A program made the position numbers and the translations under genes. Below the pieces are notes generated by a model. That model did no database searches. It worked only from the letters and a program-made list of their open reading frames with translations, and was not told the DNA's origin. From Urechis unicinctus (lineage: Eukaryota > Annelida > Polychaeta > Xenopneusta > Urechidae): DNA of 64,000 bases. Shown here piece after piece: positions 6,056 through 49,872 of this stretch (position 1 is its first letter; each line of letters begins with the position of its first letter). The stretch lies in the NCBI GenBank assembly GCA_034190875.2, contig CM067358.1, forward strand, positions 57,197,945-57,261,944. Reading direction: 5' to 3'.

Positions 6056-6632
6056 CTATAGCAGGAGGTCCTGGTGGGGGGCACAGCCGTTCGTCTTGGC
6101 GTGGGTTCGGTTGGGGAGAGTGGAGTAGCGACAGTTGTCTACAGGAGCATCCACGATTTTGGCTCTACCCGGAAACAAATCCATGCCTGTAATGTGATGG
6201 GGCTTCTGACTGGGTTTGGTCTCTTTGAGCTGGTTGTCCATTTTGAATGTAGTGTAGGAGGGTTCTCGTTGATGCTTGGCGTGGACGCTACAGGTGATAT
6301 CGGCTTTAATTGTGGTGCCACGGGCTAACGTGAACGTGGGCGCCTCCCAAATGTGCTCGTAATCGTTTCCATCTACCTTGACGGCGTGGTGGTGATGACA
6401 CATACTGGGGGTCGAGTTGGCCGACAAACTGCCACCCCCATCCCCACCAACACCACTACCATTGCCCATCTTGGTCTGCTGGGGAATCTCTTCTGTCAGA
6501 CGGGCCGTCTCGGGCCCAGGGCCAGCTGCAGTTAGCTGGTGGGTGGGAGAGCAATGTTTGAGGTTATCCGCAGACGCAGCTGCAGCAGCAGCGGCCTTCT
6601 GTCTCATCAAGATGGATTCCCGGTGCTGATGT
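6056..6632 (-). CDS. Exon 7: cytoplasmic tail and stop codon
   Basis: Terminal coding exon, 577 nt including the TAG stop. The acceptor TTGGCTGCAG/A joins AG of exon 6 to A, giving AGA arginine and the reading [16 protein letters not shown]. The 191-residue tail has a run of seven alanines, a glycine-rich stretch ([12 protein letters not shown]), a CHHHH run, and three tyrosine contexts: NDYEHIW (a YxxPhi-type sorting motif, YEHI), PSYTTF and RYSTLP. It ends in HQDLLL, with a terminal run of leucines. No enzymatic domain is visible; the tail is probably disordered and binds adaptors, which is inference. The open frame continues upstream of the acceptor by chance for 21 codons, so its apparent ATG at 6697 is not the start. 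Confidence 0.85.

Positions 6633-49872: not shown

What the first reader, a model, noticed from the sequence alone, without database searches (positions are those of the whole stretch)
6056..49872. Receptor with the unusual order SUEL-CUB-sushi-stalk-TM-tail
Seven exons join in frame into a 562-residue type I membrane protein whose lectin, CUB and sushi modules I cannot match to a named family. Known SUEL membrane proteins (latrophilins, EVA-1) have other partners. The order is seen in the sequence; the absence of a named counterpart rests on my own knowledge, and uncharacterised relatives may exist. The 191-residue tail has three tyrosine contexts and suggests signalling or sorting.
Basis: partly seen in the sequence, partly recalled or inferred. 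Interest (0 to 1): 0.72.

Follow-up and report, generated by a model that had tools for sequence, protein, structure and literature searches.

The report
Lectin-type receptor from large gene family
The gene in this window encodes a one-pass cell-surface receptor built from a lectin-like module, a CUB module and a small cysteine-rich module, and it belongs to a large family of similar receptors in the same animal genome, some of whose lectin exons lie in long tandem arrays.

Summary
SUEL is certain (Pfam 1.3e-9). CUB escapes Pfam in this protein, but a profile of 14 family members finds solved CUB domains (best 5.9e-8). 'Sushi' is not confirmed: the module has four cysteines and a tryptophan but no profile calls it sushi. 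The first stage could not see that this gene belongs to a large family: its genome holds at least 150 SUEL exons above Pfam's cut-off (capped). In 20 of 22 SUEL copies read, CUB and the four-cysteine module follow in that order. On C8 about 43 SUEL exons (17 read) precede two CUB-module-TM-tail cassettes with no SUEL between them; 11 of the 17 have a signal-peptide exon candidate upstream. This suggests a protocadherin-like variable/constant locus; there is no RNA evidence. Among scored matches the window gene is the only one on C17. Its usual sugar-contact glutamate is asparagine, so rhamnose binding is unlikely. My paper searches found no described family with this order.

The parts
49815..49872 (-). 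E1: ATG and signal peptide [19 protein letters not shown], phase-1 donor
   Evidence: better of 2 candidates passing thresholds in the 43 kb upstream of E2
20615..20905 (-). E2: SUEL (rhamnose-binding-lectin-like) domain, phase 1-1
   Evidence: Pfam PF02140 1.3e-9, above cut-off; solved rhamnose-binding-lectin and latrophilin domains
20041..20451 (-). E3: CUB domain, phase 1-1
   Evidence: no Pfam CUB hit alone; family profile finds PDB CUBs, best 5.9e-8; hhalign 96.3%
18361..18552 (-).
   Evidence: 4 Cys and a Trp invariant in the 14 aligned members; sushi identity not confirmed
12524..12601 (-). E5: short acidic stalk exon (provisional), phase 1-1
   Evidence: splice-site scan only
11945..12026 (-). 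E6: transmembrane helix [27 protein letters not shown], phase 1 in, 2 out
   Evidence: hydropathy and splice sites
6056..6632 (-). E7: 191-residue cytoplasmic tail and stop (6056-6058); alternative acceptor 6668; YEHI, YTTF and YSTL contexts
   Evidence: 8 of 9 residues of DYEHIWEAP shared with paralog L028 (E 0.18)

Best explanation
The window holds one real gene for a type I cell-surface recognition receptor. Shown from sequence: signal peptide, SUEL domain, CUB domain, four-Cys module, one TM helix, a 191-residue tail, and membership of a large family in the same genome with the same module order and SUEL-exon phases. Inferred: the SUEL domain, at the outer tip, binds a surface ligand (protein or unusual glycan, because the canonical sugar-contact Glu is Asn); CUB and the Cys module space it or co-bind; tail tyrosines, perhaps above all the one in DY-x-HIWEAP, are phosphorylated to dock SH2 adaptors or act as YxxPhi sorting signals. 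The window gene is the only member found on C17, while relatives on C8 and C9 expanded, much of it in tandem, which fits a surveillance or self/non-self repertoire.
For: Exact 562-aa model. SUEL. CUB: (96.3%; four mismatched profile pairings at most 2.3%). At least 150 SUEL exons in the genome, the 150 scored all above Pfam cut-off. SUEL-CUB-module order in 20 of 22 copies read. In-frame phase 1-1 AG/GT borders in 38 of 40 SUEL exons by a permissive test. Purifying selection in two sets of SUEL exons: median dN/dS 0.15 (34 of 45 pairs usable) and 0.08 (21 of 78), with dS near saturation. TM helix and tyrosine-bearing tail in L033, L035 and L037.
Against: No RNA, no orthologs from other species, species unknown. 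The third module matches no sushi profile. E5 and two acceptors are unproven. The tail shares only nine residues with one relative read, and that match alone is not significant (E 0.18). In the C838 and C8:47.8 Mb copies the CUB-like module has lost its second Cys pair. Ligand, expression and immune role are inference; no pair showed dN above dS, so the diversifying signature of an arms race is not seen.
Confidence: 0.66

Rival explanations
1. Developmental or neuronal co-receptor, like EVA-1 or latrophilin: the SUEL domain binds a guidance or adhesion protein, and the C17 gene is a conserved member whose role differs from that of the expanded C8 genes.
For: Only SUEL gene on C17 among scored matches; short terminal branch in the SUEL tree (0.19); SUEL domains of known membrane proteins often lack sugar-contact residues (PMC2430599, passages).
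Against: Same module order and exon phases as the expanded genes; no expression data.
Confidence: 0.3
2. Endocytic or scavenger receptor: YxxPhi motifs (YEHI, YTTF, YSTL) sort it through clathrin pathways; it clears glycoproteins rather than signals.
For: Three YxxPhi contexts in the tail; CUB domains of cubilin, an endocytic receptor (recalled), are among the best profile hits.
Against: YxxPhi motifs are short and common; tails of some relatives also carry YLTP and YDFP contexts, better suited to SH2 docking (SH2 preference recalled).
Confidence: 0.3
3. The exons do not form one gene: the ectodomain exons (20.9-18.4 kb) and the TM and tail exons (12.0 and 6.6 kb), or E1, belong to different transcripts.
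For: 29-kb first intron; E5 weak; no canonical poly(A) signal in 3.06 kb after the stop.
Against: Phases fit; TM and tail follow the same ectodomain modules in L033, L035 and L037; no competing signal exon of similar quality.
Confidence: 0.07

Closest known systems
EVA-1 / EVA1C (C21orf63)
   Same: Single-pass membrane protein with SUEL ectodomain (PMC2430599, passages)
   Different: Described there as two SUEL domains; the window protein has one SUEL, then CUB and a Cys module
Latrophilins (ADGRL, LAT-1)
   Same: N-terminal SUEL domain; sequence matches
   Different: Seven-TM receptors with other ectodomain modules; the window model has one TM helix, then a tail
CSDIR of Anopheles stephensi (XP_035915664.1)
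   Same: CUB and sushi in one protein, with Drosophila orthologs (PMC11474193: section 5 part 1 and passages)
   Different: At least 1190 residues; the words lectin, SUEL and transmembrane do not occur in that paper; its sequence could not be compared
Drosophila CG42613
   Same: CUB-domain membrane protein (PMC12634045, passages)
   Different: SUEL or sushi content not verified; gene name recalled as a lead
Secreted rhamnose-binding lectins (CSL2, CSL3, 5h4s)
   Same: SUEL domains by sequence
   Different: Chains of 195-284 residues with two or three SUEL matches each; 5h4s has Glu after the first Cys where the window has Asn
Clustered protocadherins, UGT1A, Dscam1 (gene layout only; recalled)
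   Same: Tandem variable exons before shared downstream exons, compared with the C8 array
   Different: Different domains; SUEL exons here also have acceptors, so several could be joined; splicing not shown

Membership tests
SUEL / rhamnose-binding lectin domain | Pfam PF02140 above curated cut-off | tested here: met
   38.7 bits against a cut-off of 31.4
SUEL / rhamnose-binding lectin domain | Sugar-contact Glu after the first Cys (Glu42 of latrophilin-1) | tested here: not met
   Asn in the window; Glu in 3 of 40 family SUEL domains; role of Glu42 from PMC2430599, passages
CUB domain | Pfam CUB match of the protein itself | tested here: not met
   no CUB match at E up to 10; 3 of 14 family members match PF00431, best 0.0019
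CUB domain | Profile similarity to solved CUB domains | tested here: met
   PCPE-1 5.9e-8, cubilin 2.4e-7; hhalign 96.3%
Sushi / CCP domain | Profile similarity to known sushi domains | tested here: not met
   no sushi hit in PDB or Pfam; hhalign 0.9%; 1049 of 1924 scored shuffles reach its score with a small sushi profile
Sushi / CCP domain | Four cysteines with Trp between the last two (pattern recalled) | tested here: met
   invariant in the 14 aligned; of the copies not aligned, one in L034 lacks the first Cys
EVA-1 | Two SUEL domains and one TM | tested here: not met
   one SUEL match in the window
Latrophilin | Seven-TM adhesion GPCR | tested here: not met
   in the joined model one TM exon, then tail and stop
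CSDIR | Orthology by sequence | not testable with these tools
   no animal protein collection available

The most novel reading that the evidence does not exclude
The family includes a locus on C8 in which about 43 tandem units, many of them a signal-peptide exon plus a SUEL exon, lie before two shared CUB-module-TM-tail cassettes. Choosing one unit (alternative promoter and splicing), or nested runs of units, would give a cell a particular receptor: a protocadherin-like diversity generator built from lectin domains, with the window gene as a fixed single-unit relative.
Probability: 0.42. Interest if true: 0.92.

Novelty: new variant of a known kind. Interest (0 to 1): 0.76.

Why it matters
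A receptor family of this size with a recurring SUEL-CUB-Cys-module plan, TM helices and tyrosine-bearing tails where these could be read, and tandem expansion has the anatomy of a recognition repertoire, and my searches found no description of it. If the C8 array is expressed as variable units joined to shared cassettes, it would add a lectin-based case to the few known exon-array diversity systems. The gene on C17 gives a tractable member for finding ligand and pathway.

Tried and rejected
Single-sequence folds of the CUB exon (mean pLDDT 36.1) and the four-Cys exon (53.1) were too poor, so no fold search was run. Relatives in genome contigs (CUB exon) and viral contigs (ectodomain): none confirmed. 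Rfam at gathering thresholds on the window: no match. A small CUB profile made from eight solved domains separated E3 from shuffles only modestly: of 2000 shuffles each, 1 of 1718 scored reached it, and 0 of 1755 with Cys fixed; a small sushi profile did not separate E4 (1049 of 1924 and 1286 of 1945 reached it). DUF6687 matched the four-Cys exon below its cut-off, in 1 of 14 members; set aside as probable chance. Positive selection as a sign of an arms race: not seen (11 of 45 and 57 of 78 pairs unusable, dS near saturation in the rest). One giant poly-SUEL protein as the reading of the C8 array: less likely because 11 of 17 array SUEL exons read (8 of 10 in L036, 1 of 5 in L035, 2 of 2 in L038) have a signal-exon candidate at most 520 bases upstream, against 0 of 300 places on the plus strand of these loci and 23 of 500 on the window's minus strand; thresholds were relaxed from those, where 7 of 10 in L036 passed; not excluded.

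Full report
Gene model. Junctions are GT-AG and phase 1 except that the TM exon leaves in phase 2. The first exon ([19 protein letters not shown]) was the better of only two signal-exon candidates passing my thresholds in the 43 kb upstream of the SUEL exon. Two acceptors have in-frame alternatives (18528 for E4, 6668 for E7). The acidic stalk exon rests on splice signals only; three other phase 1-1 candidates outside the model score as high on this strand, and a transcript without the stalk exon stays in frame. No canonical poly(A) signal was found in the 3.06 kb after the stop. A translated search of the window, its two 10-kb flanks and the eight short loci found no second copy. Rfam found nothing at gathering thresholds.

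What the modules are. E2 is a SUEL domain: Pfam 1.3e-9, above cut-off, with matches to solved rhamnose-binding lectins (best 1e-13) and latrophilins. The alignment with 5h4s places Asn where that lectin has Glu after the first cysteine. In latrophilin-1 all substitutions tried at that Glu and at Lys120 strongly reduced or abolished rhamnose and galactose binding, and its authors argue that SUEL domains in receptors recognise non-carbohydrate ligands (PMC2430599, passages). E3 matches no Pfam CUB model alone, but a profile of 14 family members, the window included, finds procollagen C-endopeptidase enhancer (5.9e-8), cubilin (2.4e-7) and weaker CUBs, and a profile-profile comparison gives 96.3%, against at most 2.3% for four mismatched pairings. 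E4 has four cysteines and a tryptophan that are invariant in the 14 members aligned (one unaligned copy in L034 lacks the first Cys), but neither Pfam, nor the PDB profile search, nor profile comparison supports sushi. I call it a four-Cys, sushi-like module.

The family. A search of the window's own genome (1.19 Gb, 926 contigs, unnamed) with the ectodomain gave 138 matches, a floor because only 134 of 403 candidates were scored. Three were the window's own exons, five were CUB or Cys-module matches elsewhere, and the others were SUEL exons at 33-57% identity, most of them on contig C8, with some on C9, C10 and C838. A Pfam search for SUEL gave 150 matches of 150 scored (260 candidates), all above cut-off: by my hand-typed tally 115 on C8 (76 of them in 9.4-9.7 Mb and 20 in 47.69-47.87 Mb) and 15 on contigs other than C8, C9 and C838, the window gene being the only one on C17. 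Iterated profiles on 19 loci found 22 SUEL copies; in 20 the CUB and then the four-Cys module follow on the same strand. The sample is biased: 15 loci are from the best SUEL matches, and L031-L034 were fetched partly because CUB or Cys-module matches had been seen there; L016 and L027 were left out as repeats of L031. The two exceptions are L022 and a copy cut off by the end of C838. By a permissive test, 38 of 40 SUEL exons have in-frame phase 1-1 AG/GT borders. In the C838 and C8:47.8 Mb copies the CUB-like module lacks the second Cys pair.

Tails. The window tail has YEHI, YTTF and YSTL contexts. Eight of the nine residues DYEHIWEAP recur in a downstream frame of L028 as DYTHIWEAP; by itself that match has E 0.18. 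Copies on C838 and at C8:47.8 Mb have another tail, with YTTV, YLTP, YDFP, YFVL and YIAV contexts where it was read to the end. L033, L035 and L037 show a TM helix and a tyrosine-bearing tail. For the other copies the TM helix was not located.

The C8 array. Between 9.413 and 9.656 Mb the two searches place 105 merged SUEL positions (one pair 213 bases apart may be one exon). In L036 there are 10 open SUEL exons and no CUB or four-Cys module. Downstream, L035 has four SUEL exons with open frames and a fifth, more diverged, without the usual donor, then CUB, four-Cys module, TM and tail; then, with no SUEL found between, a second CUB and module, whose TM and tail lie in L037. From about 9.5127 to 9.5640 Mb I count 43 SUEL exons: 41 from the position list and two more from L035, one of them the diverged one. 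I read 17 of the 43. A signal-peptide exon candidate lies 88-148 bases before 11 of these 17 (8 of 10 in L036, 1 of 5 in L035, 2 of 2 in L038), against 0 of 300 and 23 of 500 control places (thresholds relaxed). This favours units of signal peptide plus SUEL that share downstream cassettes, as in clustered protocadherins (recalled), over one giant protein. The units also have acceptors, so nested multi-SUEL products are possible. The 10 exons of L036 are under purifying selection (median dN/dS 0.15, 34 of 45 pairs usable, dS near saturation). None of this is shown at RNA level.

Mechanism. The best reading is a cell-surface recognition receptor whose distal SUEL domain binds a protein or non-canonical glycan and whose tail works through tyrosine phosphorylation or, as a rival, YxxPhi sorting. 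Module order, TM and tail are shown from sequence; ligand, signalling and an immune role are inferred. The window SUEL has a terminal branch of 0.19 in a tree of 40 domains, shorter than those of the other single copies read (about 0.4 to 0.85), fitting a slowly evolving member; the tree is unrooted and weakly supported in places.

Comparison and novelty. EVA-1 is described with two SUEL domains and latrophilins are seven-TM receptors; the window protein is neither. Ten paper searches were made; seven aimed at this order or its expansion and one at exon arrays (123); no listed paper shows the order, but searches listed only part of what matched. A mosquito CUB-plus-sushi protein (PMC11474193, section 5 part 1 and passages) and Drosophila CG42613 (PMC12634045, passages) are leads I could not compare. 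An Aplysia survey lists three SUEL genes (PMC9334734, passages), and rotifers have few short SUEL lectins, with SUEL also in some large membrane proteins of bdelloids (PMC8878817, passages); the abundance here therefore looks unusual, although the counts were made in different ways.

Noticed in passing
own genome C8:9512694-9564000 (L035, L036, L038): About 43 tandem SUEL exons, many of those read with their own signal-peptide exon candidate, before CUB-module-TM-tail cassettes: a possible variable/constant exon array.
   Followed up: partly
L035 minus-strand positions 9357 onward into L037: A second CUB-module-TM-tail cassette with no SUEL found between it and the first cassette.
   Followed up: partly
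own genome C8:9593207-9655399: A second dense run of SUEL exons on the same strand; its sequence was not read.
   Followed up: no
L034 (C8:23703500-23713499): One SUEL and CUB followed by four copies of the four-Cys module and repeated tail-like frames, as if the downstream part was duplicated.
   Followed up: no
own genome C8:47705976-47706215: A SUEL match inside an open frame of 1985 residues, far longer than for the other SUEL matches listed.
   Followed up: no
own genome C13:71078619-71085173: Four strong SUEL matches in 7 kb, perhaps classical secreted rhamnose-binding lectins.
   Followed up: no
window 33785-35505: Tandem array of a 39-base unit, about 44 copies, open on the minus strand over long stretches, inside the first intron.
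   Followed up: no
window 47162-48143, 56533-57326, 61084-61771: Further minisatellite arrays with units of 43, 44 and 73 bases.
   Followed up: no
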